From Tannerella sp. (GTDB lineage: Bacteria > Bacteroidota > Bacteroidia > Bacteroidales > Tannerellaceae): a stretch of 33,575 bases of DNA. How positions within the stretch are numbered: the first letter of the stretch is position 1; every line of letters starts with the position of its first letter. The DNA lies in NCBI GenBank assembly GCA_031277335.1, contig JAITMM010000048.1, positions 1-33,575 of the forward strand, written 5' to 3'. This document shows, piece after piece, positions 19,071-33,290 of the stretch. The notes beneath the pieces are model-generated. The model made no database searches, was not told where the DNA came from, and saw only the letters and a program-made list of their open reading frames with translations. The translations under genes were made by a program, and so were the position numbers.

Positions 19071-20534
19071 ATGAATTTGAATCAGCTGATTAAATCAAAT
19101 AGTGTAAATGAAATTGCAGGAGACGGTCAAATCACGATTTCCGGCATAGAATCCGATTCCCGGAAAGTGATTCCCGGCATGCTGTTTGTAGCCGTCAAAG
19201 GCACGACAGTGGATGGACACGACTATATCGGCAAGGCGATAGAAAACGGGGCGACAGGTGTTGTATGTGAATATATACCTGACAATGTGGCATCTGCAAG
19301 CGTAGTTTTTGTACTTGTACCTGATTCGGCCGATGCGTTAGGCCGGATGCTCGATACGTGGTATCACCATCCTACCTCGCGGCTTACCCTCGTCGGCGTG
19401 ACGGGCACCAACGGGAAGACGACGGTCGCCACAACGCTTTATAATCTCTTTCGCCGCTTAGGACATAAAACAGGCTTGCTGTCAACAGTTTGCAACTATA
19501 TCAACGACGAACGCCTTCCGGCTTCCCATACGACGCCGGACCCTGTTTCACTCCATCGGTTACTTGCTCAAATGGCAGACGCAGGCTGTGAATACGCCTT
19601 TATGGAAGTCAGCTCTCACGCCATTGATCAACAGCGCATTAGCGGACTTAATTTTCGGGGAGGCATCTTTACCAATCTCTCGCGCGACCATCTTGATTAC
19701 CACAAGACAGTCGATAACTATTTGAAAGCGAAGAAGAAATTCTTCGACGACCTGCCTGATACGGCTTTTGCGCTGACCAACATTGACGACAAAACCGGCA
19801 GCGTCATGCTGCAAAATACGGCAGCCCGCAAACTGACCTATTCGCTGCAAACGATGGCCGACTTCAAGGCGAAAATCATCGAATCGCATTTTGAAGGTAC
19901 GGAGCTGACAGTCAATGGACGGGACGTCTTTGTCCGTTTTGTCGGCAAATTCAATGCCTACAACATGCTGGCTATCTATGGCGCTGCCATGGCACTGGGA
20001 CAGAACCCTGAGGAAACGCTGATTGCCCTCAGCGACCTGCAGCCGGTAGCCGGCCGATTCGAAACGGTACGCTCGCCTTTGGGCAGCACCGCCATCGTGG
20101 ACTACGCCCATACGCCTGATGCACTGACGAATGTATTGAACGCCATTCGCGAAGTATTAAACGGGAACGGCCGCATCATCACGGTCGTCGGCGCCGGAGG
20201 CAATCGCGACAAAGGCAAACGGCCGCTGATGGCACGCGAAGCATCCCGCCTGAGCGACACCGTCATCCTGACGTCCGACAACCCCCGCTTTGAAGAGCCG
20301 GATGATATCATCAACGATATGTTAGCCGGCCTCGATGACAAAGCGCAGGCATCAACGCTCTGTATCACAGACCGTAAGCAAGCCATTCGCACCGCCGCCC
20401 AACTTGCGCAAAAAGGCGACGTCATCCTGATCGCCGGCAAAGGCCACGAAGATTATCAGGAAGTGAAAAGCGTAAAAACCCACTTCGACGACAAGGAAAT
20501 CATCATGGATTCTTTTAAGCATCAAACCGTATAA
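19071..20534 (+). CDS. murE: UDP-MurNAc-L-Ala-D-Glu:meso-diaminopimelate ligase
   Basis: Adds the third residue of the peptidoglycan stem peptide in the cytoplasm. The ATP-binding loop TGTNGKT is at 111-117, and D403-N404-P405-R406 is the motif that marks meso-diaminopimelate-specific enzymes. The start at 19071 is preceded by AGAGGCGAA, a good ribosome-binding site. Length 487 is normal. The 3' end is odd: the last 29 codons (20448-20534) are repeated in diverged form at 21239-21322, just before mraY. The tail now attached to the gene ([13 protein letters not shown]) looks less like what I recall of usual MurE ends than the orphan copy (CEIVRDIFKTQQ). The gene appears intact despite this. 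Confidence 0.95.
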
Positions 20535-20600
20535 ATTAAGATGTTTATACGGAAAATTGTTTTTTTCTATTCGAAATACAGAAAATTCGTTTTTTTTATA

Positions 20601-20608
20601 TACTTTTG
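20601..20608 (+). promoter_or_regulatory. Candidate -7 element of the toxin-antitoxin operon
   Basis: TACTTTTG fits TAnnTTTG and sits 26 bases before the antitoxin ATG at 20635, within a very AT-rich stretch with several T-runs. The expected TTTG box about 20 bases further upstream is not evident. Confidence 0.45.
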
Positions 20609-20634
20609 CATAAGTTTTTTTAAGAATCAAAACA

Positions 20635-20883
20635 ATGGATGTACAACATATTCAGTTGAATATACCGCTTTCGTTTCGACAGGTGATTGATATTGTGATG
20701 CAATTGTCGCCTTCCGAGAAGCAACAACTTGGTGAAGTCTTATGGGCTGAACAAAATGATGATGATGTTTTTATAGCGGAAGAACACAAACAGATAGTGA
20801 GAGACAGAATCAAAAAACTTGAAAACAGTCCCTACAGTTATCTCTCGTGGAATGATATTGAAAGGAAAATGGCTTCTCGCTAA
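20635..20883 (+). CDS. Antitoxin of a type II toxin-antitoxin module, 82 aa
   Basis: A small acidic protein. The N-terminal half (QLNIPLSFRQVIDIVMQLSPSEKQQLGEVLW) resembles antitoxins of the addiction-module-protein type that neighbour RelE/ParE toxins, and the C-terminal half (IKKLENSPYSYLSWNDIERK) would be the flexible toxin-binding part. Its TAA overlaps the toxin ATG by one base (20883), the classic tight coupling of such pairs. Expected role: neutralises the toxin and represses the shared promoter. It sits inside the dcw cluster, in the same direction as murE and mraY, where no such gene is normally found. Family name not certain. Confidence 0.75.
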   Translation: MDVQHIQLNIPLSFRQVIDIVMQLSPSEKQQLGEVLWAEQNDDDVFIAEEHKQIVRDRIKKLENSPYSYLSWNDIERKMASR

Positions 20884-21191
20884 TGAAATTCACAATTGAA
20901 TATAATCCTGAATTCTTTGACGATCTTGTTCAAGCTGTTGACTGGTACAATAACAAACTTATTGGATTAGGAGATAGATTCCTCGACAAAGTCAAAAAAC
21001 AAACGGCGAAACTATCTACATCTGCTTTACTTTTTTCCGTAAAATATGAGAATATACGTTGTATGAGAATAGAAAAATTTCCTTATTTGGTACATTATCA
21101 AGTAGACGAACAAACTTTAACTGTTAAAGTGGAAGCGCTGTTCCATACAAGTCGAAACCCGGGCGTTTGGCATAAACGCGCTTTAGATTGA
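20883..21191 (+). CDS. RelE/ParE superfamily toxin, 102 aa
   Basis: A typical RelE/ParE-fold protein: the N-terminal YNPEFFDDLVQAVDWYNNK segment forms the first strand and helices, followed by the core strands YENIRCMRIEKFPYLVHYQV and the C-terminal ALFHTSRNPGVWHKR. RelE-type members are ribosome-dependent mRNA endonucleases and ParE-type members poison gyrase; the sequence alone does not separate these for me. The R/H residues near the C-terminus (HTSRNPGVWHKR) are common in both. It overlaps the antitoxin stop by one base. The reading frame is intact, so the module is probably active. Base composition here is more AT-rich than murE on the left. Confidence 0.85.
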   Translation: MKFTIEYNPEFFDDLVQAVDWYNNKLIGLGDRFLDKVKKQTAKLSTSALLFSVKYENIRCMRIEKFPYLVHYQVDEQTLTVKVEALFHTSRNPGVWHKRALD

Positions 21192-21238
21192 ACTAACATA
21201 CTAAATCATTTATTGAACGGAATATTAGGTGCAAACGA

Positions 21239-21322
21239 GAAGATTATCAGGAAGTAAAAGGCGTCAAAACCCACTTCGACGACTGCGAAATTGTAAGAGA
21301 TATTTTTAAAACGCAACAATAA
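21239..21322 (+). pseudogene. Orphan duplicate of the murE 3' end
   Basis: These 84 bases align with the last 87 of murE (20448-20534). The first 45 bases differ at only 3 positions, while the remainder diverges but keeps the reading frame: 20 of the 27 encoded residues agree and each ends in TAA. There is no start codon in frame (a stop lies at 21194-21196). The TAA ends 5 bases before the mraY ATG, a natural operon spacing, so this is probably the original murE tail left behind after the toxin-antitoxin cassette was inserted. Confidence 0.9.
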
Positions 21323-21327
21323 AAACT

Positions 21328-22593
21328 ATGTTATACGACCTCTTTAACTATTTAGATCAGATTGATGTGCCCGGCGCCGGAATGTTCAAATACATTTCGT
21401 TCCGTTCCATTTCGGCGCTCGTCTTCTCATTGATAATCTCTACCTTGATAGGACGACGGATTATAGATAAGCTGAAGTCATTGCAAATAGGCGAATCCAT
21501 CCGCAACTTGGGCGTCGAAGGCCAATATTCAAAACAGGGAACACCTACCATGGGAGGGATTATCATTATCATTGCCATTTTAGTTCCGACGCTACTCTTC
21601 GCAAGATTGAATAATATATACCTGATAATCATGCTTATTACTACCGTATGGCTGGGGGCACTCGGTTTTGCAGACGACTACATCAAGGTGTTTAAAAAGG
21701 ACAAAAAAGGACTGCAAGGGCGGTTTAAAATCATCGCCCAGGTTGGACTTGGGATTATCGTTGGATTGATTCTTTTCCTAAGTCCTGCCGTCGTCATACG
21801 CGAAAATATGGAGATACGCAATCCGGAAAATAACGGGATTGAAAATATTCATTATCAGACGAATCATACTAAATCAGCCAAGACCACCATTCCTTTTGTC
21901 AAAAATAATAACCTGGATTATTCGCAACTGTTTAATTGGACCGGAGACTTCAAGACGCTGGCAACCTGCATATTCTTTATTGTTGTCGTAACATTTATAG
22001 TCACAGCCGTCTCAAACGGAGCCAACCTGACCGACGGATTGGATGGCCTGGCGGCAGGCAGTTCGACCATTATCGGAGCCGTGCTGGCCATTTTTGCCTA
22101 TACCTCGTCGCACTTACAGTTGGCTTCTTTCCTCAATATCATGTTTATACCCGGTGCCGAAGAGCTTGTAGTGTTTGCTGCAGCCTTTATTGGCGCTACA
22201 TTCGGATTTTTATGGTATAACGCCTATCCGGCTCAGGTTTTTATGGGCGATACCGGCAGTCTGATGCTGGGAGGCATTATCGCAGTATTTGCCATTATCA
22301 TTCGCAAAGAGCTGTTAATCCCTCTGTTATGTGGTATTTTTTTGGTTGAAAGCCTCTCGGTCATGCTGCAAGTGAGTTATTTTAAGTATACAAAGAAAAA
22401 ATATGGCGAAGGGAGGCGGGTTTTTAAGATGACGCCGCTCCATCACCATTTTCAGAAACAGGGCAATGTCGGGATTCAGGCATTGATACAGAAGCCGTTA
22501 AATGCCGTGCCCGAATCGAAAATCGTGATCCGGTTCTGGCTTATCGGGATAATTTTGGCTGCACTAACGCTGATTACGCTGAAGGTTAGGTGA
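21328..22593 (+). CDS. mraY: Phospho-MurNAc-pentapeptide transferase
   Basis: An integral membrane enzyme that transfers phospho-MurNAc-pentapeptide to undecaprenyl phosphate, making lipid I. About ten hydrophobic segments. The catalytic motifs are DDYIK (with the aspartate pair), NLTDGLDGLA, FMGDTGSL and the C-terminal PLHHHF. At 421 residues it is longer than the ~360 of E. coli; the extra length lies in a polar loop around residues 155-205 (NPENNGIENIHYQ...), as usual in Bacteroidetes. It begins 5 bases after the orphan murE tail and 136 bases after the toxin stop, so its transcription could come from the dcw operon, from the toxin-antitoxin promoter, or both. Confidence 0.96.
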   Translation: MLYDLFNYLDQIDVPGAGMFKYISFRSISALVFSLIISTLIGRRIIDKLKSLQIGESIRNLGVEGQYSKQGTPTMGGIIIIIAILVPTLLFARLNNIYLIIMLITTVWLGALGFADDYIKVFKKDKKGLQGRFKIIAQVGLGIIVGLILFLSPAVVIRENMEIRNPENNGIENIHYQTNHTKSAKTTIPFVKNNNLDYSQLFNWTGDFKTLATCIFFIVVVTFIVTAVSNGANLTDGLDGLAAGSSTIIGAVLAIFAYTSSHLQLASFLNIMFIPGAEELVVFAAAFIGATFGFLWYNAYPAQVFMGDTGSLMLGGIIAVFAIIIRKELLIPLLCGIFLVESLSVMLQVSYFKYTKKKYGEGRRVFKMTPLHHHFQKQGNVGIQALIQKPLNAVPESKIVIRFWLIGIILAALTLITLKVR

Positions 22594-24218: not shown

Positions 24219-24740
24219 ATGACATGCTCAGAGCGACAACTTTTAGAATCTGTCAAAAAAGGCAACGAAGCAGCCTTTCAAAAGATTTTCTATTCGTATA
24301 GCGATAAGTTGTATACTTTGGCGTATAAGATCACCCGAAACACATCGGCAGCCGAAGATATCGTTCAGGATTTTTTTGTCAGATACTGGGAAAAACGCGC
24401 TTCTCTTGAATTTAATCCATCATTTGCAGCTTACGCATACAGATCAATATATAACTTGTCGTTAAACTATCTCAGAGATAATGAACGTTTTATCTATGGA
24501 CTTGAGTTGACTATCGATTTACATGACAGCGAAGTAGAAGATGATGATTTACAGGAACTTAAGACTCTTTTAATGAAAGCTATAAACGAATTGCCGGAAA
24601 GATGTAAAAAGATATTTGTCATGGCCACTTTGGAAAACAAAAAATATTCGGAAGTAGCTGATTTGATGGGTATATCAATCAATACAGTGAAAGTGCAGGT
24701 TTCAAAAGCTTACCATATATTGAAAGAGAAATTAGGATAA
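24219..24740 (+). CDS. ECF sigma-70 factor, Bacteroidales FecI-like type, 173 aa
   Basis: An extracytoplasmic-function sigma factor. Region 2 lies at about 18-85, with KITRNTSAAEDIVQDFFVRY as the core- and -10-recognition segment; region 4 lies at about 115-170 with the helix-turn-helix KKYSEVADLMGISINTVKVQ. Region 3 is absent, as in all ECF factors. The fecR-type anti-sigma gene is 57 bases downstream, followed by an STN-bearing SusC, the standard trans-envelope signalling set for glycan uptake. ATG 24219 is the only sensible start. The AATAATACT-N14-GTGTTAT motif upstream of it and of its two partners suggests positive autoregulation. Confidence 0.93.
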   Translation: MTCSERQLLESVKKGNEAAFQKIFYSYSDKLYTLAYKITRNTSAAEDIVQDFFVRYWEKRASLEFNPSFAAYAYRSIYNLSLNYLRDNERFIYGLELTIDLHDSEVEDDDLQELKTLLMKAINELPERCKKIFVMATLENKKYSEVADLMGISINTVKVQVSKAYHILKEKLG

Positions 24741-24752
24741 ATGTCATATTAG

Positions 24753-24782
24753 AATAATACTTTTTCACTGTATATGTGTTAT
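24753..24782 (+). promoter_or_regulatory. ECF-type promoter of fecR (copy 2)
   Basis: AATAATACT (24753-24761), 14 bases, GTGTTAT (24776-24782), then ATAAGAAAA as in copy 1. The -10-like box ends 15 bases before the fecR ATG, so the transcript would be nearly leaderless (about 8 bases). Confidence 0.75.
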
Positions 24783-24797
24783 ATAAGAAAATAAATA

Positions 24798-25832
24798 ATG
24801 AAAGTTGTCAAAAACAAATATGCTCAATACAAAATTCTTTTAAGCGTACTTAGTGGCGAAACAGCCGAAACAGACCCTGAGTTTCAACAATGGCTAACGC
24901 TGGAAATAGATAATAAAGAGTTATATAATTACTTAAACGGCAGATATAAAGGCCGAAGAAAAGATATATTTTCGCATCAGGAATCTTCTTTTAATAAAGA
25001 TCAGGCATTCGAAAACATAAAGTATATTCTCGGTTTGGAAATGCAAACAAAGAAGCCGTTTTTTCGATCCCCACTTTTTAATCTCGTAGCGTCAGTTGCT
25101 ATTATTGTCATTCTCTATATAACAGGATACTATATGTATCAGGGGTTTATAAAAGAGCAAACTGATGAATTTGCCAAATCCGTGAATAAAGAAACGTTAC
25201 AGAATGTTTATGTACCAAAGGGAATCATACATGAGGTCATCTTGAGCGACAGCACAAAAGTCATTCTTAATTCAGAATCGAGATTAGTATTTCCGACAAA
25301 ATTCACCGGTAAGTCGCGAATAGTGGAGTTGATCGGAGAGGCATTTTTTGAGGTATCAAAAAAAGATGCCCCTTTTATTGTTAAAACGGCGGAAATGCAA
25401 ATTAACGTGACCGGTACTTCATTTAATGTAAGCGCTTATCAAGATAATTTGTCAGTACAAACCACATTGGTGGAAGGAAAAGTGCAAATCACAATTCCTG
25501 ACAAACCTGACACATACACCTTAAATCCGGGCAACAATTTCAGTCTGTCAAAATCATCCGAAGAAATAACTATTCAAAAAGTTAATACAGACAAGTATAC
25601 ATCATGGATGAGAGGCGAGCTTATTTTCCGCAATCAACGTTTAGAAGAGATATTTATAACCCTAAAAAGATGGTATGATTTTGATATTGAATATAACAAC
25701 CCTCATATCAGAAACATGAGATTCACGGGAAGCGTAGAGAAAAAACGTTCTTTAGATTATTTTCTGAAACAAATTCTAACCGTCACCGACATAAAATACA
25801 AGTATAAAGACGAAAAAGTCATATTGTTTTAG
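24798..25832 (+). CDS. FecR family anti-sigma factor, 344 aa
   Basis: A membrane-spanning regulator that holds or activates the ECF sigma factor and receives the signal from the STN domain of the receptor. The cytoplasmic N-terminus (1-90) binds the sigma factor, and a single membrane segment spans about 92-114 (LVASVAIIVILYITGYYMY). A FecR domain (about 130-235, VYVPKGIIHEVILSDSTKVI through FEVSKKDAPFIVKT) is followed by a C-terminal DUF4974-type domain (about 270-344, ELIFRNQRLEEIFITLKRWY), all in the periplasm. Length and order are normal for Bacteroidetes FecR proteins. It has its own copy of the ECF promoter motif as well as the sigma gene upstream. Confidence 0.94.
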   Translation: MKVVKNKYAQYKILLSVLSGETAETDPEFQQWLTLEIDNKELYNYLNGRYKGRRKDIFSHQESSFNKDQAFENIKYILGLEMQTKKPFFRSPLFNLVASVAIIVILYITGYYMYQGFIKEQTDEFAKSVNKETLQNVYVPKGIIHEVILSDSTKVILNSESRLVFPTKFTGKSRIVELIGEAFFEVSKKDAPFIVKTAEMQINVTGTSFNVSAYQDNLSVQTTLVEGKVQITIPDKPDTYTLNPGNNFSLSKSSEEITIQKVNTDKYTSWMRGELIFRNQRLEEIFITLKRWYDFDIEYNNPHIRNMRFTGSVEKKRSLDYFLKQILTVTDIKYKYKDEKVILF

Positions 25833-25871
25833 CTTCCGATATGGTTTTGTTTGTTAGCATATTTCTCAGTT

Positions 25872-25908
25872 CAAAGTCCTTGATTTCCATCGCGAAATCG
25901 GGACTTTG
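25872..25908 (+). terminator. Hairpin between fecR and susC, possible terminator
   Basis: CAAAGTCC (25872-25879) pairs with GGACTTTG (25901-25908), and inside it GATTTC pairs with GAAATC around a 6-base loop, with a small asymmetric bulge. There is no clear T-run after it (CATTTAAC follows), so it may be a weak terminator or an attenuator that makes susC depend on its own promoter at 26021. The rest of the 250-base gap shows no gene. Confidence 0.5.
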
Positions 25909-26020
25909 CATTTAACACGAAACTCAATGTCGAAGTCTTCTGAAAATACAATTTTATTGGGACAAAAAAGACGTCTATACAAACAGTAGTTCAGCTAAAC
26001 ATAAAAATAATCTCGTTTCA

Positions 26021-26050
26021 AATAATACTTTTTAACTTCTCATGTGTTAT
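26021..26050 (+). promoter_or_regulatory. ECF-type promoter of susC (copy 3)
   Basis: AATAATACT (26021-26029), 14 bases, GTGTTAT (26044-26050), in the same layout as the copies before the sigma gene and fecR. Transcription would start near 26057. Because the -10-like box includes the GTG at 26044, that codon cannot be the susC start. Confidence 0.75.
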
Positions 26051-26082
26051 TAATATCACAATTATTAACAAATTTTAAATGG

Positions 26083-29000
26083 ATGAAAGGTATGAAAGGA
26101 AATTATCTTAAAAATGCAAAAATGCTTCCTGTCAACAAAAGGCTTTTACGTATTTTGTATGTGACTTATTTCTGTTTTTTATTGGGTACCAATATTATGT
26201 GGGGAGAATTTACGTATGCTCAACAAACATTATTGACGCTATCGTATAATAATGTAGAGTTGGAAGAAGTGTTTAATTCGATTCGTCGGCAAAGTGAATT
26301 TGAATTTTTCTACAACAACGATCAGGTCGATACTTCGACAAAGACAAGTGTGTATGTCAAAGATGCTGACATTTATGAAGTCATGAAACAAATCCTACCG
26401 ACTGTTTATGAATATGAGATCAAAGACCGGTATGTGCTGATTAGCAAAGCGAAAGCGCTTCCTCCGGAAATTATTTCAATAGTTCAACAGCAAGGCAGAA
26501 CGGTAACCGGAGTTGTTCGTGACGCATCAGGCCCTGTTATAGGCGCAAATGTTGTAGTAAAGGGGACGACAAATGGCGCTGTGACAGATGTTGACGGAAA
26601 ATTTTCCATTGAGAATATACCGGCAAATGCTATCTTACAAATATCTTATGTCGGATACATTTCTCAAGAGATCTCCGTTGATAATCAATCGCAAGTCACA
26701 ATCACTTTGCGCGAAGACGCCGAGTCATTAGACGAGGTAGTCGTTGTGGGTTATGGTACGATGAGGAGAAGAGATGTCACAGGGTCGGTAGCATCTCTTT
26801 CTTCAACACAATTAAAAGACAGGCCAATAGCAAAGCTTGACCAGGCTTTAAGCGGGCAATTGGCCGGTGTTCAGGTAATGGATGTGACAGGAGAGCCGGG
26901 AGCCGATATGCTAATCAGAGTCAGAGGAGTAGGCAGTATTTCCGCAGGTTCGGCACCTTTATATGTCATTGACGGATTCCCGTTTGCCAATTTGCAAACA
27001 TTGAATCCGGGAGATATTGAAACGATAGATGTATTGAAAGACGCTTCAGCGACAGCTATATATGGTTCAAGAGGCGCAAATGGAGTTGTCATGATCACGA
27101 CTAAAAGAGGGAAAGAAGGTCAGACAAGGATTACAGCCGATATTTATACAGGTTGGCAGTCGGCAATGATGCGTCCGGAATTTTTCAATTCAAAGCAACA
27201 GTCTCAATATTATTATGATGGTGTTCGCAACGAAAATACTGATTTAGGAATTGACGTATCACTTCCCTACACGGAATGGGGCAAACAGCCGAGTCCGATT
27301 TATTCGGGGACAATGGGTTCTGCAATGCCTCAAACACCAATGGACGTGCTTGAAGGTAGGAATACGTTCGAGACGGACATGCTCGATGAAGTATTACGAA
27401 ATGCCATGCAAACTCGCTACTCAATTTCAGCAACAGGCGGTACGCAATCTCTAAAGTACTCTATAAGCGGAGAATATCTTGATCAAGACGGTATTGTATT
27501 AGGTACCGATTTTAAAAGATATTCATTCAGCTCAAATTTCGATGTTCAATTAAAGCATAAATTATCTTTAAAACTGAACTTTAGAAGCGCAATGACCGAT
27601 GTGAGTTGGCAACGCAACAGTGATGGAGGCGGTGGAAATAACTGGAGTGTGATAGCTCAGGCAACATCTCAAATGCCGTATTATCCGGCTTATAATGAGG
27701 ACGGAAGTTATTACGTCCTTTTTGATTTGGATGCTTCGACCGTCTTGTACAACGCATTAGCTGTTGCTAAAGAAAGGCTGACAAAACGCAATAGAAGAGA
27801 AACCTTCGGCAATGCGAATTTGAATTATATCATTACAGATGGTTTAAATATAAATTTTAATTCAGGCGCGATATTGACTTCTTTCAATGAAATGATATTC
27901 ACACCCGGCTTGCCTGTTTTCAATAATAATGCTCCAAGCGGAAGCGACGCCTCAGAATTTGGACTGGACTGGAATACTGAAACAACATTAAACTTTGACA
28001 AATCAATTAAAAATCACAATTTCAAAGCTTTATTAGGTTTTGCCACAGAAAAGACAACAATTAAATCTTCAAGTCTTTCAAGTGATAGATTTCCAAATAA
28101 TCTTGTTCAATACCTCAGTGCTGTCAGTGGCATAATTACAGACGGGACATCAGCGCTGAACGAATATTCTCTGATTTCTTATTTTGGACGAATCAATTAC
28201 AATTATTCTGAGAAATATTATCTGTCGGCTTCTCTTCGAACAGACGGTTCATCTCGATTTGGATCAAACCATAAATACGGCTGGTTTCCGTCGGCATCAG
28301 CCATGTGGCGTGTATCGGAAGAAGGTTTTCTAAAAGACGTTCCATATCTAAGTCAATTACGTTTAAAACTCACTTACGGCGTGACGGGGAATAATAATAT
28401 CGGCAACTACGATCATTTAGCCACAGTCAATTATGTGCGTTCTATTCTTGGAAACGTAGCTTCTCAGGGATATGCTCCTGCAAGATTATATAACCCTGAC
28501 CTGACATGGGAAAAACAACAACAGATCAATGCAGGCGTCGAGGTGGCTTTTCTAAATAATAGAATTGGATTAACTGTTGATTATTATAATTCTACAAATA
28601 GCGACCTGCTACTTAATGTGAATGTTCCTACTATATCAGGGTTTCCTACTGCCTTGCAGAATATAGGAGAAGTTAAAAATCATGGGGTTGAATTTGTATT
28701 GAATACCGTCAATTTACAGGGAGATTTCAACTGGTCGACGAATTTTAATATTTCTATGTATAGAAATAAGGTGACCAAACTCGGCCCGGAAGGTGACCCG
28801 ATTCGTAGTGGATGGAATATTACTGAAATAGGCCAACCTATTGGAATGTTTTACGGCTTGCTTTGGGACGGAATTTTCCAAAATCAGGCTGAACTCGACA
28901 AGGGGCCGAAATATAATCCCGGCCTAAGAGACGAGTCGCGTGTAGGCGATATACGTTTCAAAGATGTAAGTGGGCCTGACGGCGTCCCTGATGGCATCAT

Positions 29001-29541
29001 AACAGTCGATGACTATTCCATTATGGGCAATCCATATCCTGATTTCTATTATGGCATGACAAATCAGTTCTCATATAAAAATATCAATTTGAACATCGGT
29101 CTCGTCGGCTCATCCGGAGCAGATGTACTAAATCGCGCCAACGAAATACGACTCCTTACAAGATCGCGTAGCAGAACACTCGCGACACAGGTAAATTATT
29201 GGAAATCAGAAGCAGATCCCGGAGATGGAAAAACGCCGAGACCAAATAACAATCCTACGGGAGGTATACGGTTGCCGAATCAGCGTCACATGGATAGCGG
29301 CACATTCCTTAGAATAAACACGATTTCATTTGGATATCTCTTCCCCAAGTCAATCACGCAAAAGCTGCAACTCTATTCGCTTAGAATCTATGCCACAGCT
29401 ACAAATCCGTTTATTTTCACTGACAACACCTCATTTAATCCCGAAGTGGCTAATAGCAGAGCTGCATTAGAACCTGGTATAGACTACAATAATTACCCTA
29501 TTGCCAAAAGTTTTATTTTCGGATTAAATCTTGAGTTTTAA
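26083..29541 (+). CDS. SusC/RagA family TonB-linked outer-membrane transporter with N-terminal STN domain, 1152 aa
   Basis: The outer-membrane channel of a glycan or peptide uptake system. A long N-terminus with a hydrophobic export segment (about 23-45) is followed by an STN signalling domain (about 50-120, LLTLSYNNVELEEVFNSI...), a carboxypeptidase-like domain (about 140-225) and the plug. The family signatures DEVVVVGYG, LYVIDGFPF and LKDASATAIYGSRGANGV are all present, then the barrel ending in FIFGLNLEF. The STN domain fits control by the adjacent FecR/ECF pair. ATG 26083 and ATG 26092 are both possible starts (the latter has GAAAGG upstream); an in-frame GTG at 26044 is excluded because it lies in the promoter. 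susD follows 21 bases after the stop. Substrate unknown. Confidence 0.94.
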   Translation: MKGMKGNYLKNAKMLPVNKRLLRILYVTYFCFLLGTNIMWGEFTYAQQTLLTLSYNNVELEEVFNSIRRQSEFEFFYNNDQVDTSTKTSVYVKDADIYEVMKQILPTVYEYEIKDRYVLISKAKALPPEIISIVQQQGRTVTGVVRDASGPVIGANVVVKGTTNGAVTDVDGKFSIENIPANAILQISYVGYISQEISVDNQSQVTITLREDAESLDEVVVVGYGTMRRRDVTGSVASLSSTQLKDRPIAKLDQALSGQLAGVQVMDVTGEPGADMLIRVRGVGSISAGSAPLYVIDGFPFANLQTLNPGDIETIDVLKDASATAIYGSRGANGVVMITTKRGKEGQTRITADIYTGWQSAMMRPEFFNSKQQSQYYYDGVRNENTDLGIDVSLPYTEWGKQPSPIYSGTMGSAMPQTPMDVLEGRNTFETDMLDEVLRNAMQTRYSISATGGTQSLKYSISGEYLDQDGIVLGTDFKRYSFSSNFDVQLKHKLSLKLNFRSAMTDVSWQRNSDGGGGNNWSVIAQATSQMPYYPAYNEDGSYYVLFDLDASTVLYNALAVAKERLTKRNRRETFGNANLNYIITDGLNINFNSGAILTSFNEMIFTPGLPVFNNNAPSGSDASEFGLDWNTETTLNFDKSIKNHNFKALLGFATEKTTIKSSSLSSDRFPNNLVQYLSAVSGIITDGTSALNEYSLISYFGRINYNYSEKYYLSASLRTDGSSRFGSNHKYGWFPSASAMWRVSEEGFLKDVPYLSQLRLKLTYGVTGNNNIGNYDHLATVNYVRSILGNVASQGYAPARLYNPDLTWEKQQQINAGVEVAFLNNRIGLTVDYYNSTNSDLLLNVNVPTISGFPTALQNIGEVKNHGVEFVLNTVNLQGDFNWSTNFNISMYRNKVTKLGPEGDPIRSGWNITEIGQPIGMFYGLLWDGIFQNQAELDKGPKYNPGLRDESRVGDIRFKDVSGPDGVPDGIITVDDYSIMGNPYPDFYYGMTNQFSYKNINLNIGLVGSSGADVLNRANEIRLLTRSRSRTLATQVNYWKSEADPGDGKTPRPNNNPTGGIRLPNQRHMDSGTFLRINTISFGYLFPKSITQKLQLYSLRIYATATNPFIFTDNTSFNPEVANSRAALEPGIDYNNYPIAKSFIFGLNLEF

Positions 29542-29562
29542 ATAATTAAAAAAAATTAGGAA

Positions 29563-30999
29563 ATGAAAAAAATATATTTATTCTTATTTATTACGTTTCT
29601 ATGCACTGACTGCAGCGACGATTTCATTAACCTTGAACCTCAGTCGACAGTAATCATAGACAATCTGTATACCACAGATAATGACTTTAATAACGCCGTA
29701 GTTGGAGTATACGCCGTGTTGCAAACTCAATTCACACAGATGTATATTTTTGGAGACATACGGGCAGACGATGCCGAAGTACATGTCATCAAAAACAATA
29801 ATCATTCTGAGTCAGACCTATTTATCATGAATTCTATAAATGGGTTGATAAATAGTACATGGCAGAATTTTTATAACATAATTTTCAGGGCAAACATGGT
29901 TTTAGACAGAATAGAAGCAGCTGATCCATCAGTCGTTACTAATAAAAACAGATACATAGCCGAAGCTAAATTTCTGCGAGCGTTTGCCTATTTCAACCTT
30001 GTAAGAATTTATGGTGATGTGCCTTTAGTTACCCTACCGATCAGTTCGGTCGAAGCTCTTGAAACGCCGCGTTCGGGCACGGATGCTGTTTACCAACTAA
30101 TCATCAGCGATATAGCAAGTGCAGAGCCGGACTTGCCTACAGAATATTCAGGCAGTAGCGTCGGTAGAGTTACGCGTGGCGCTGCAAAATCCATACTTGG
30201 TAAAATTTATTTAGACCGTCATGATTATGTTAATGCAGAAAGTAAACTGCAGGAAGTGACCACTATGGGTTATAAACTGCTTGACAACTACAACGACCTC
30301 TTTAACTATTCACTCGACGAGCATCATAGCGAATATATTTTCGATGTAGAATATGCAGCCGGTCAAAATGTTGCAAACAGCCTGACAAACGACCTTTTAC
30401 CCAACTCGGCAGCCTTTGAAGCTTTTTACGGCATTGCAGGTATAGGAGGAGAGACTCTTAATCCAACCGAGGCGTTGAGAAGTTTGTTCGAAGAAAACGA
30501 TACGCGCAAAGACGTCACAGTGGCAACCTTCGGAGGATGGATCAATGGCGATGGTGAATTTGTAGCGTTTCCTCCGGCAACAGGCCGCTCATGGACAAAA
30601 AAATATATCGCTCCTGTAGCAGTGTCCGGCCAAAGTCCATGCAACTGGAAAGTGACAAGATATGGAGATGTAGTATTAATGTATGCAGAAGCATTGAATG
30701 AAAACGGAAAAACAAGTGAAGCATTGACATGGCTGAATATGATCAGAACAAGAGCCGGCGTTTCAACGTATTCTGATCTCTCCCAAGAAGAAACGCGTGA
30801 AGCCATTTACACTGAGCGAAGATTGGAGCTGAGCTTTGAAGGTCACAGATGGTTCGATTTAGTAAGATACGGAAGAGCTTATGACACCATGAGAGAAAAA
30901 GGGATGGCGCAGTATATGACACTTTTCCCTGTCCCGTGGTCGCAGATTCAGGTTGTCAACGACCAGGCGATATTCTGGCAAAATGAAGGTTACAATTAA
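29563..30999 (+). CDS. RagB/SusD family nutrient-binding lipoprotein, 478 aa
   Basis: The surface lipoprotein that forms a lid over the SusC channel and binds the substrate. The first 16 residues are a hydrophobic leader and the probable lipidated residue is C17, followed by SDDF as usual in SusD; the residues before it (CTD) are not a canonical lipobox. The TPR-like helical body includes AKFLRAFAYFNLVRIYGDVP and GAAKSILGKIYLDRHDYVNA, and the C-terminal part has RRLELSFEGHRWFDLVRYGR, both hallmarks of the family. At 478 residues it is within the family range. It follows susC closely and should be co-transcribed. The hydrolase gene after it has its own promoter. Confidence 0.94.
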   Translation: MKKIYLFLFITFLCTDCSDDFINLEPQSTVIIDNLYTTDNDFNNAVVGVYAVLQTQFTQMYIFGDIRADDAEVHVIKNNNHSESDLFIMNSINGLINSTWQNFYNIIFRANMVLDRIEAADPSVVTNKNRYIAEAKFLRAFAYFNLVRIYGDVPLVTLPISSVEALETPRSGTDAVYQLIISDIASAEPDLPTEYSGSSVGRVTRGAAKSILGKIYLDRHDYVNAESKLQEVTTMGYKLLDNYNDLFNYSLDEHHSEYIFDVEYAAGQNVANSLTNDLLPNSAAFEAFYGIAGIGGETLNPTEALRSLFEENDTRKDVTVATFGGWINGDGEFVAFPPATGRSWTKKYIAPVAVSGQSPCNWKVTRYGDVVLMYAEALNENGKTSEALTWLNMIRTRAGVSTYSDLSQEETREAIYTERRLELSFEGHRWFDLVRYGRAYDTMREKGMAQYMTLFPVPWSQIQVVNDQAIFWQNEGYN

Positions 31000-31009
31000 A
31001 TAGACATCT

Positions 31010-31042
31010 TTTGGATGGCGTCATTAATATTGATTATATTTG
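31010..31042 (+). promoter_or_regulatory. Promoter of the glycoside-hydrolase-like gene
   Basis: TTTG at 31010-31013, 21 bases, TATATTTG at 31035-31042, an exact fit to the housekeeping pattern. The start near 31048 leaves a leader of about 38 bases before the ATG at 31086. It differs completely from the ECF-type boxes of the preceding genes. Confidence 0.75.
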
Positions 31043-31085
31043 TGGCGCCTTTCTTTTGAAATTCAATAATAATAAATACTACAAT

Positions 31086-33290
31086 ATGGACAGACGAAAT
31101 TTTATCAGGAATGTATCGATAGCCGGCGGTGCGATGGCTATTTCAGGGAATGCTGCATTTACGACGATGGCGGCAGATGGGGAGTCTTTACCTTTGCAGC
31201 AGATGCGGCAGATGCAGTCGGACGAGCCTTGGTTCAATAAGGCCATGCGATGGGCGCAGGTGGCGTTTGTGGAAAATGATCCGGAGAAATATGACAGACA
31301 ATTTTGGGTGGATTATTTCAAAAAGGCGCATATAGACGGCGTATTGCTTAGCGCTGGAGGAATTGTGGCTAATTACCCGACGCAGATACCGTTGCATCAT
31401 CGCAGCGACTGGCTGGGCGATAAGGATATTTTGGGTGATCTGATTGCCGAGTGCAGGAAAATGGAGATGACGGTCGTGCTCAGGACTGATCCTCATGCTG
31501 TCAGGCAGGATGTTTGCGATGCCCATCCCGAATATATTGCCGTCACGGCCGACGGGCAGAAACGCCGTCACTGGGCGCGGACAGACCTGTGGGTCACCTG
31601 TGCCTTAGGGCCGTATAACTTTGAGTTTATGACCGAAGTACATAAGGAAATCATGCAGCGCTATATGCCGGAAGGGATTTTCTCAAACCGCTGGGCAGGG
31701 CATGGCGTCTGTTACTGTGACAGTTGCAAGAAACTGTTCAAAGCCGCCACAGGTCTTAACCTGCCAAAAAATACGAACCGTCTCGATCCGGTATATCAGA
31801 AATGGAACGACTGGCAAACCGACAGATTGAAAGAGCTTTGGTTTCTTTGGGATGCCGAAATACGGAAAATCAAGCCGACGGCAAGGTTTATCCCTAATGG
31901 CTTCCCTGACAGAATGTTGACTGGTAAATATTCGGATTTTTTCTTTGCCGACCAGCAGGGCAGGCGCGGACAGTCGCTCCCGTGGGAAAATGCGCGCGGC
32001 GCCAAGGAATTGCGGGCAAGCCTTGGTTTAAAGCCGCTTATAGGGATTTTCAGCGTGGGTCTGGAGGAAGAATTTCGATGGAAAGATTCGGTGCAGACCG
32101 ATGCCGAACTGCGGATCTGGGTGGCTGAAGGCACGGCCAACGGCATGAAACCCTGCTTTGTGAAGTTCGGAGCGCACGTGCTCGATACAAGATGGATGGA
32201 TACGATCGCTGCTGTGTATCAGAATTATTATAAAAGTGAACGTTATCTGCGCAATACGGCTTCCATGTCGCGCATAGGTGTGGTTTTTTCGCAGCAGACA
32301 AGCCGCAGATATGGAGGAGAATCTTGGCAGCAAAATAGTAATCAGCATGGTATGGGCATGTATCACGCCCTTGTCGAAGGAAGTATTCCTTTCGATATGG
32401 TCAACGACCAGATGATGGACACCGAAGGTCTTAAACAGTATAAACTACTTATACTCCCCAATATAGCTGCTCTCTCAGACGCACAGTGCGATCAGCTGCG
32501 GGCGTTTGTTGGGGCAGGCGGAAGCATCGTAGCAACTTACGAGACATCGCTTTACGACGAAAACGGCAAACGCCGCGCCGATTTCGGATTGAAAGACCTT
32601 ATCGGCGCATCATTCGACAATGCCGTGGAAGGTCCGATGCGCAACAGCTACCTCAAACTGAAGAAAGATGCTTCGGGCGCTTTCCATCCTGCATTGCAGG
32701 GATTGGAAAACGCTTATCGCATTATCAATACGATATATAATGTGAAAGTTAAGCCGCTGGATCAATCCCTGCCGTCGCCTGTGACATTGGTGCCTACGTA
32801 TCCCGATTTGCCGATGGAGGATGTCTATCCGCGAATTGAGGAGACGGATATCCGCGAACTGTATCTGCGACAGGTCGGCAAAGGTCGCGTCGCCTATTTC
32901 CCCGTAGACATCGACCGGACTTTCTGGCAGTTAATGGCCGATGATCATGCGCGTTTGCTACGCAGCACTATCGACTGGGCGCTGAATGAAGACCCCGTAG
33001 TCGATGTCAAGTGTCAGGGAGTGATGGATGTAGCCGTATGGCGTCAAAAAGATTCCATGACGGTGCATCTCGTCAACCTGACGAATCCGATGATGATGAA
33101 GGGTCCGTTTCGTGATATCTTCCCTGTCGATGCGACAGTAGATATACAAATACCTGATAATAGCAGCGTTAAGGCTGTCAAGTTGTTGTTTTGCGGGAAA
33201 ACGCCGCAATATTCGATCAGGGGAAACAGGGTCTCGCTTTATGTGCCGCAAGTTCCTGATCATGAGATTGTGGCGATAGATTTGACATAA
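31086..33290 (+). CDS. Tat-exported glycoside-hydrolase-like protein with beta-galactosidase-trimerisation-like domain, 734 aa
   Basis: The first 30 residues are a twin-arginine signal (RRNFIR at 3-8, then GGAMAISGNAAF), so it is exported folded. Residues about 45-340 look like a TIM-barrel hydrolase of the family often listed as hypothetical glycoside hydrolase 6: WVDYFKKAHIDGVLLSAGG, EGIFSNRWAGHG and the cysteine motif CYCDSC. Residues about 380-530 (GVVFSQQTS..., YKLLILPNIAALSDAQCDQL) resemble the flavodoxin-like trimerisation domain of GH42 beta-galactosidases. A small beta domain ends the protein. Catalytic residues cannot be assigned safely. A longer frame opening at TTG 31011 runs through the promoter and is rejected; ATG 31086 gives the clean signal. 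Role inferred: degradation of a glycan imported by the adjacent SusCD. Confidence 0.8.
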   Translation: MDRRNFIRNVSIAGGAMAISGNAAFTTMAADGESLPLQQMRQMQSDEPWFNKAMRWAQVAFVENDPEKYDRQFWVDYFKKAHIDGVLLSAGGIVANYPTQIPLHHRSDWLGDKDILGDLIAECRKMEMTVVLRTDPHAVRQDVCDAHPEYIAVTADGQKRRHWARTDLWVTCALGPYNFEFMTEVHKEIMQRYMPEGIFSNRWAGHGVCYCDSCKKLFKAATGLNLPKNTNRLDPVYQKWNDWQTDRLKELWFLWDAEIRKIKPTARFIPNGFPDRMLTGKYSDFFFADQQGRRGQSLPWENARGAKELRASLGLKPLIGIFSVGLEEEFRWKDSVQTDAELRIWVAEGTANGMKPCFVKFGAHVLDTRWMDTIAAVYQNYYKSERYLRNTASMSRIGVVFSQQTSRRYGGESWQQNSNQHGMGMYHALVEGSIPFDMVNDQMMDTEGLKQYKLLILPNIAALSDAQCDQLRAFVGAGGSIVATYETSLYDENGKRRADFGLKDLIGASFDNAVEGPMRNSYLKLKKDASGAFHPALQGLENAYRIINTIYNVKVKPLDQSLPSPVTLVPTYPDLPMEDVYPRIEETDIRELYLRQVGKGRVAYFPVDIDRTFWQLMADDHARLLRSTIDWALNEDPVVDVKCQGVMDVAVWRQKDSMTVHLVNLTNPMMMKGPFRDIFPVDATVDIQIPDNSSVKAVKLLFCGKTPQYSIRGNRVSLYVPQVPDHEIVAIDLT

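What the first reader, a model, noticed from the sequence alone, without database searches (positions are those of the whole stretch)
20448..21322. Toxin-antitoxin cassette inserted in the dcw cluster with a replacement murE tail
Seen directly: the last 29 codons of murE (20448-20534) are repeated at 21239-21322. The copies differ at only 3 of the first 45 bases, then diverge while keeping frame and stop. Between them lies exactly one intact antitoxin-toxin pair. The second copy has no start and ends 5 bases before mraY, as a native murE-mraY junction would. Inference: the cassette (new tail + promoter + TA genes) entered the essential murE gene at the GAAGATTATCAGGAAGT stretch and restored the reading frame with its own tail. 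This would let a small TA module colonise an essential operon without loss of the host gene. The alternative is import of a murE-TA segment by homologous recombination from a relative.
Basis: partly seen in the sequence, partly recalled or inferred. Interest (0 to 1): 0.78.

Follow-up and report, generated by a model that had tools for sequence, protein, structure and literature searches.

The report
Toxin-antitoxin pair beside duplicated gene end
A two-gene toxin-antitoxin module sits inside a cell-wall operon of a Bacteroidales bacterium with the end of the neighbouring gene present on both sides of it, and a few relatives of this module carry the same kind of scar, which hints at how such modules get into chromosomes.

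Summary
The last 29 codons of murE (20448-20534) recur as a start-less copy at 21239-21322, 5 nt before mraY, with one intact PF09720/PF05016 antitoxin-toxin pair between. The toxin is missing from 40 congeners but for one 29% hit; 77% and 69% homologues lie in other families at unrelated sites without a murE tail, so the tail is not a fixed part of a cassette. Of 112 loci of this toxin family, 27 have flanking same-strand repeats, against 8/376, 16/200 and 1/56 control positions; six, window included, duplicate a gene or tRNA 3' end. Insertion with long target duplication is described for restriction-modification systems and one-sided homologous insertion for secretion effectors, so this is a new variant of a known kind. 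In-situ duplication is not excluded; one other case favours it, and no break was shown inside murE.

The parts
19071..20534 (+). murE, 487 aa, intact; ends with tail copy 1
   Evidence: translation; Pfam Mur_ligase, Mur_ligase_M, Mur_ligase_C
20448..20534 (+). tail copy 1: functional end of MurE, deviant from the genus ([28 protein letters not shown])
   Evidence: deviates at 3 of 21 conserved tail columns, copy 2 at 1
20527..20552 (+). 10-bp hairpin spanning the murE stop codon, weak terminator-like
   Evidence: fold z -3.65
20601..20608 (+). TACTTTTG, -7 element of Bacteroidota type (TAnnTTTG, recalled consensus), promoter candidate of the TA pair
   Evidence: motif not enriched: 29 found, 26 expected in the window; the same letters lie upstream of the homologous pair in L176
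20635..20883 (+). antitoxin, 82 aa, Unstab_antitox (PF09720)
   Evidence: 30.2 bits against cut-off 23.3
20883..21191 (+). toxin, 102 aa, ParE/RelE superfamily (PF05016)
   Evidence: 32.2 bits against cut-off 23
21192..21238 (+). 47-nt spacer with no detectable murE homology; right junction of the insert at 21238/21239
21239..21322 (+). tail copy 2: start-less native-like murE end, 5 nt before mraY
21328..22593 (+). mraY, 421 aa, intact

Best explanation
The insert is the scar of a one-sided homologous import. DNA from a close relative, in which this TA pair already lay just downstream of murE, recombined with the resident murE on the left by homology. On the right it joined the resident chromosome by illegitimate recombination at 21238/21239, inside the resident murE end. 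The gene therefore now ends with the donor tail (copy 1), followed by the TA pair, and the resident tail (copy 2) is stranded as an untranslated leader of mraY. The TA pair keeps its own promoter; antitoxin and toxin are presumably made as an ordinary type II pair, and MurE stays complete, so the event is tolerated in an essential operon. Shown: anatomy, TA pair foreign to the genus, native-like copy 2, abrupt right junction, gene-end duplications around some homologous modules. Inferred: donor, left crossover, illegitimate right end, promoter, TA activity.
For: Copy 2 fits the tails of 36 congeners better in 33 and equally in 3; among the listed family matches those to copy 1 end by 20516 while many to copy 2 run to 21315 or beyond. 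The two copies are about as far from each other (14 of 72 nt) as each is from the sister species G019 (16 and 13), and the window's murE differs from that of G019 at 108 of 174 four-fold sites. A tail dead since so old a split would be scrambled, but copy 2 keeps a coding-type pattern. The copies diverge with the early/late contrast of other murE pairs of the genus. In five coding cases of the family 20 of 38 nucleotide changes between copies are synonymous against about 0.2 expected, most clearly in L180 (6 of 7) and L305 (6 of 10), as if both copies had been working gene ends in different genomes; the window alone has 5 of 14 (P 0.05). The right junction is abrupt. The donor was close. 27 of 112 TA loci carry flanking repeats, above three control sets. 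A published model of the same form exists for secretion effectors (PMC5361080, passages).
Against: No donor genome with murE-TA was found. A break inside murE was sought and not shown: codons 1-200 and 201-458 both place the window with G019 (support 95 and 75), although GC3 rises from about 0.5 to 0.7 along the gene (other genes of the window reach 0.72) and G019 is the nearest relative in windows 1-80 and 121-200 but in no later one. In single parts of the tail copy 1 is sometimes the closer: 1 of 36 congeners for nt 1-45, 3 of 36 for nt 46-72, and 42 of 122 tails for the last residues. For the tRNA-Leu case L291 the gene copy is native-like in 23 of 24 relatives, 1 tie, which fits in-situ duplication. 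In L290 only 2 of 6 changes are synonymous. The synonymous test rejects wholly neutral divergence only; a constrained functional copy alone would also add synonymous changes. 72-84 nt is little sequence.
Confidence: 0.5

Rival explanations
1. Insertion with long target duplication in situ: the TA segment was inserted into the resident murE end and gap filling or break repair duplicated about 84 nt of the resident gene; the two copies then drifted.
For: This mode is described for restriction-modification systems, with target duplications of the order of 100 bp (PMC3874152 and PMC3031569, passages). The 36-143 nt gene-end repeats at unrelated genes fit one local mechanism. L291 behaves this way.
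Against: In the window it is the functional copy that departs from the genus while the untranslated copy is conserved, the reverse of what drift of a dead copy gives. The distance between copies equals that to a sister species. Excess of synonymous changes in L180 and L305.
Confidence: 0.27
2. Site-specific integration at a gene 3' end: the element carries an att-like gene tail and a recombinase acting in trans replaced the resident tail, as integrases do at tRNA and some protein-gene ends (recalled).
For: Anatomy of a restored gene end with the old end displaced; one homologous module lies between two copies of a tRNA-Leu 3' half with its terminator.
Against: No integrase or transposase gene lies between the murE copies; the nearest homologous modules and the other gene-end cases share no common tail; the listed matches of the family search show no second murE-tail junction with a TA pair (4 candidates scored per genome), and an exact degenerate tail pattern had no match in viral contigs.
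Confidence: 0.1
3. Copy 2 is kept because the murE end is also the leader of mraY; any mechanism of insertion is acceptable but only products that keep the leader survive.
For: The tail has the highest raw synonymous-codon conservation of 95 windows of the gene in the genus.
Against: After correction for residue type the excess is small (5 of 95 windows higher). G043 and G012, with large inserts between murE and mraY, show no second tail before mraY.
Confidence: 0.08
4. Assembly chimera of two strain variants.
For: The genome is a draft of 284 contigs and the two tails look like two variants.
Against: Longest exact shared runs are 17-18 nt (by eye); similar structures occur at other genes in other genomes.
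Confidence: 0.05

Closest known systems
Insertion of restriction-modification systems with long and variable target duplication (Nobusato 2000, seen only as cited in passages of PMC3031569 and PMC3874152)
   Same: Small addiction-type gene pair, flanking direct repeats of the order of 100 bp
   Different: Here a type II toxin-antitoxin pair; in the window and two other cases the copies look like diverged working gene ends rather than fresh duplicates
Homology-facilitated illegitimate recombination, and its use as a model for orphan immunity genes of Vibrio cholerae T6SS clusters (PMC5361080, passages)
   Same: One homologous anchor, one illegitimate end, new module upstream, old 3' part stranded downstream
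   Different: There the stranded part is a gene with a use (immunity); here it is a tail of under 30 codons without a start
Chromosomal mazEF, yafNO and ccd modules between neighbouring genes in E. coli (relA-mazG, dinB-yafP, folA-apaH; PMC7167474, passages)
   Same: Solo TA modules placed between neighbouring genes at plastic insertion sites
   Different: The passages seen report no duplicated gene end and call the integration mechanism unelucidated
Integrative elements at tRNA or gene 3' ends (recalled)
   Same: Gene end restored, old end displaced
   Different: No integrase, insert under 0.8 kb, no shared att core seen

Membership tests
Type II toxin-antitoxin module, ParE/RelE superfamily | Toxin of PF05016 | tested here: met
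   32.2 bits, cut-off 23
Type II toxin-antitoxin module, ParE/RelE superfamily | Upstream overlapping antitoxin gene | tested here: met
   PF09720, 30.2 bits, cut-off 23.3; the two ORFs overlap by one base at 20883
Type II toxin-antitoxin module, ParE/RelE superfamily | Toxin kills or arrests, antitoxin rescues; target gyrase or ribosome | not testable with these tools
   needs expression assay; no convincing solved chain by sequence (best E 0.37)
Insertion with long target duplication | Insert flanked by same-strand repeats of the target | tested here: met
   71 nt at 82%; 27 of 112 family loci have some flanking repeat
Insertion with long target duplication | Both copies derived from one resident site | tested here: inconclusive
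   window argues against, L291 for
Homology-facilitated illegitimate recombination | One homologous side with donor sequence in the resident gene | tested here: inconclusive
   copy 1 is the odd tail, but trees show no break in murE
Homology-facilitated illegitimate recombination | Other side joined without extended homology | tested here: inconclusive
   abrupt start of copy 2; the donor beyond the joint is unknown, so homology or microhomology there cannot be measured
Integrase-driven element at a gene end | Recombinase gene and common att core | tested here: not met
   only the two TA genes lie between the copies; homologues at unrelated sites without a shared tail
PARIS (AriA-AriB), for the inserts of two congeners | AriA ATPase and AriB DUF4435 as adjacent genes | tested here: met
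   PADLOC AriA and AriB models hit in G043 and G012 at E 6e-69 to 5e-84; DUF4435 in Pfam; defence not testable

The most novel reading that the evidence does not exclude
Solo chromosomal TA modules of this family spread as naked two-gene segments by one-ended homologous capture at gene 3' ends: they hitch to the tail of the neighbouring gene in one strain and are carried into relatives by recombination in that gene, leaving a stranded old tail each time. Duplicated gene ends would then be a general, datable fingerprint of TA invasion, and would explain how such modules enter essential operons without harm.
Probability: 0.3. Interest if true: 0.75.

Novelty: new variant of a known kind. Interest (0 to 1): 0.52.

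Why it matters
How TA modules move between hosts and integrate is called unelucidated in a 2020 review (PMC7167474, passages). The window shows a junction at which an incoming and a resident gene end may be told apart, and the flanking repeats around 27 of 112 homologous modules give a simple genomic test that can be extended to other TA families. It also shows a toxin pair, and in two congeners a PARIS-like defence pair, lodged at one and the same junction of a cell-wall operon.

Tried and rejected
A mosaic murE: sliding identity, gene-by-gene identity and GC3 suggested that codons after about 200 are imported, but both halves group with G019 in trees, so this is only a hint. Copy 2 extending further upstream in decayed form: not supported. 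Nucleotide-level conservation of the murE end as an mraY leader: the raw signal shrank after correction for residue type. A mobile vector of the TA: no toxin match in 50,697 phage records, under-60% matches in 7 of 72,556 plasmid records, none of 3 candidate stretches confirmed in viral contigs. A tail motif in viral contigs: 0 exact matches. A donor: no match that covers the TA pair among those listed for 118 family genomes (4 candidates scored per genome), and the insert in 4 of 393 order genomes including its own (2 candidates scored per genome), none of those beside a murE tail in the match.

Dropped before the gene-end count: of 27 loci with flanking repeats, 21 were not counted. L323 and L335 look like integron attC repeats (recalled). 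L183, L262, L274, L275, L282, L285, L303, L309, L324, L327, L331 and L343 are noncoding, palindromic, long or unassigned repeats. L186 lies beside what looks like an Rhs gene (recalled). L292 lies in two adjacent similar genes. L267 and L115 are inside a gene on one side. L268 is a 99% composite. L321 and L332 are possible but unclear. The sorting was by hand: the script flagged gene ends by first repeat only, flagged L268, L309, L323, L335 and L343 as touching one, and did not flag the window, L290 or the tRNA of L291. Control hits were not sorted by gene ends.

What the flank test was given: 29 loci and 20 of the 29 places it left without a locus; 29 loci and 40 of its 44 listed places without a locus; L114 and L115; and the window: 121, of which 9 were too short. 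The idea arose on the first 31; on loci fetched afterwards the count is 21 of 81.

No claim is made that gene-end duplication around TA modules is absent from print: paper searches listed no such report by title or abstract start, but one search listed 15 of 771 and 12 of 76. Papers were seen as passages only (PMC5361080, PMC7167474, PMC2884548, PMC3031569, PMC2654758, PMC3874152, PMC2701414).

Full report
WHAT IS THERE. In the window, murE (19071-20534) is followed by an antitoxin gene (20635-20883), a toxin gene that overlaps it by one base (20883-21191), a 47-nt spacer, a start-less second copy of the murE end with a stop (21239-21322), 5 nt, and mraY (21328-22593). The antitoxin matches PF09720 and the toxin PF05016, both above the curated cut-offs. 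The two tails differ at 3 of 45 and then 11 of 27 bases, and the repeat is significant in the window (E 1e-12). The 47-nt spacer is not detectably murE-like, so the right border of the insert is sharp while the left border is hidden inside murE. A 10-bp hairpin spans the murE stop, and a TACTTTTG element lies upstream of the antitoxin, as it does upstream of the 77% homologue in L176. The nearest named relatives by MurE are Bacteroidales genomes at about 60-64% identity.

WHICH TAIL IS NATIVE. The MurE ends of 36 congeners were compared over 24 residues: copy 2 is better in 33 and equal in 3. By nucleotides copy 1 is the closer in 1 of 36 for nt 1-45 and in 3 of 36 for nt 46-72. Of 122 distinct tails in hand, 94 fit copy 2 better, 26 copy 1 and 2 tie (the 122 include the window's own tail, under copy 1); for the last residues alone it is 73, 42 and 7. 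Copy 1 departs at 3 of 21 conserved columns, copy 2 at 1. Both share TH with G019 alone, and G019 groups with the window by ftsI, mraW and the first 200 codons of MurE (support 99, 98, 95). So both tails come from this lineage, and the one that now ends MurE is the odd one.

WHERE THE TA PAIR COMES FROM. Of 41 genomes of the genus only the window's own and one other (29% identity) have a toxin match; most of these genomes are incomplete (13 of 41 at least 90% complete and at most 5% contaminated). In 393 order genomes 44 match at 1e-12, the best after itself being 77% (G282) and 69% (G077), in other families. At DNA level the insert is found in 4 of 393 order genomes including its own. The homologues in G282 and G077 carry no murE tail; that of G282 lies near a tRNA-Ser-like sequence (by eye).

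THE JUNCTION. Adjacent dcw gene pairs were measured in the genus. A gap of at least 300 nt occurs between murE and mraY in 5 of 32 genomes (window included), and at the ten other junctions measured in more than one genome together in 8 of 309. With a threshold of 100 nt and six junctions picked afterwards as tight, the count is 8 of 32 against 7 of 185 (P 3e-4); that choice was made after seeing the data. Genomes whose murE and mraY lie on different contigs are not in the 32. In G043 and G012 an AriA-AriB (PARIS-like) pair fills the murE-mraY gap, without a second murE tail. By eye G006 shows the start of a like gene before its contig ends and G015 a decayed remnant without a second tail. Other long gaps were not searched for gene families. 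Among 75 named loci with both genes the gap exceeds 200 nt in 2.

DOES IT RECUR. Loci of homologous toxins were collected: 121 with the window, 112 long enough. Same-strand repeats between the upstream and downstream flank (blastn E up to 1e-3) occur in 27 of 112, against 8 of 376 positions in core-gene loci, and 16 of 200 evenly spaced and 1 of 56 small-ORF positions in 40 regions from TA-bearing genomes (P about 1e-4 each). With at least 35 nt and E up to 1e-8 the counts are 25 of 112, 8 of 200 and 0 of 56; with both copies also within 400 nt of the pair, 16 of 112, 1 of 200 and 0 of 56. The 376 core positions were not re-scored this way, and 9 of the 16 hits among the 200 come from two repetitive regions. 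The window was the discovery case; without it the three counts are 26, 24 and 15 of 111. Counts are of loci, some from one genome. The idea arose on the first 31 loci (6 hits); of the 81 added later, 21 have repeats.

GENE ENDS. Sorted by hand, six of the 112 (five without the window) duplicate a gene or tRNA end: murE (window); nadC, 36 nt, in L198 (Pfam QRPTase); an AIRS-family gene, thiL-like by recall, facing the pair, 51 nt, in L180; a tRNA-Leu 3' half with its terminator, 125 nt, in L291; a glyoxalase-family gene end, 54 nt, in L305; an aminomutase-family gene in two pieces in L290. The other 21 repeats are of other or unclear kinds, and control hits were not sorted this way. Changes between copies are synonymous in 6 of 7 (L180, the seventh making a stop), 6 of 10 (L305), 1 of 1 (L198), 5 of 14 (window) and 2 of 6 (L290): 20 of 38 in all against about 0.2 expected. 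Two other cases could be tested with relatives: in L291 the gene copy is native-like in 23 of 24 relatives with 1 tie, against my reading; in L198 the one relative agrees with the far copy at a single synonymous site. In L290 the relative G887 has a homologue of the pair on the other side of the gene, which decides nothing about the tails.

HOW IT MOST LIKELY AROSE. The window's two tails are as far apart (14 of 72) as each is from G019 (16 and 13), and the two murE genes differ at 108 of 174 four-fold sites. An untranslated copy of that age would not look like copy 2. The simplest account is that the tails parted in different genomes and were put together recently: donor murE end and TA on the left by homology, an illegitimate joint on the right. 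This is the form proposed for T6SS effector displacement (PMC5361080, passages) and for dimorphic loci in E. coli (PMC2884548, passages). Insertion with target duplications of the order of 100 bp is described for restriction-modification systems (PMC3874152, PMC3031569, passages). Trees do not show a break inside murE, so the donor was close or the imported part short. I hold this at 0.5, in-situ duplication at 0.27.

WHAT IT DOES. By family the pair should act as a type II module; activity and target are untested. On the + strand no terminator-like site follows the toxin stop in the scan (one lies inside the toxin gene), so the TA promoter may read into mraY; this is inference.

Noticed in passing
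L161 (G043:C174) and L162 (G012:C235), between murE and mraY: An AriA-AriB (PARIS-like) defence gene pair fills the murE-mraY junction; by eye a third congener (G006) shows the start of a like gene at a contig end and a fourth (G015) a decayed remnant.
   Followed up: partly
L205 14100 (G000:C149:14100): A putative S41 peptidase gene (name recalled) starts with 21 bp identical to the start of the window's antitoxin gene (AATGGATGTACAACATATTCA); its tandem paralogue upstream lacks them.
   Followed up: no
window 24219-33290 and L205: The dcw cluster is split in this genome: after murD comes a sigma factor/FecR/TonB receptor/SusD/glycoside hydrolase-like set, while ftsW to ftsZ lie on another contig.
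   Followed up: partly
L238 and L239 (G053): murE is followed by murG and murC; mraY and murD lie on another contig, so the cluster broke at the same murE/mraY junction.
   Followed up: no
L291 1127-1941 (G721): A homologous TA pair is enclosed by two copies of the tRNA-Leu 3' half plus terminator (125 nt, 91%) with no room for an integrase between them.
   Followed up: partly
L323 and L335: Homologous TA pairs flanked by TAACAAAGCGTTTTAAATCGGAC-type repeats that look like integron attC sites (recalled).
   Followed up: no
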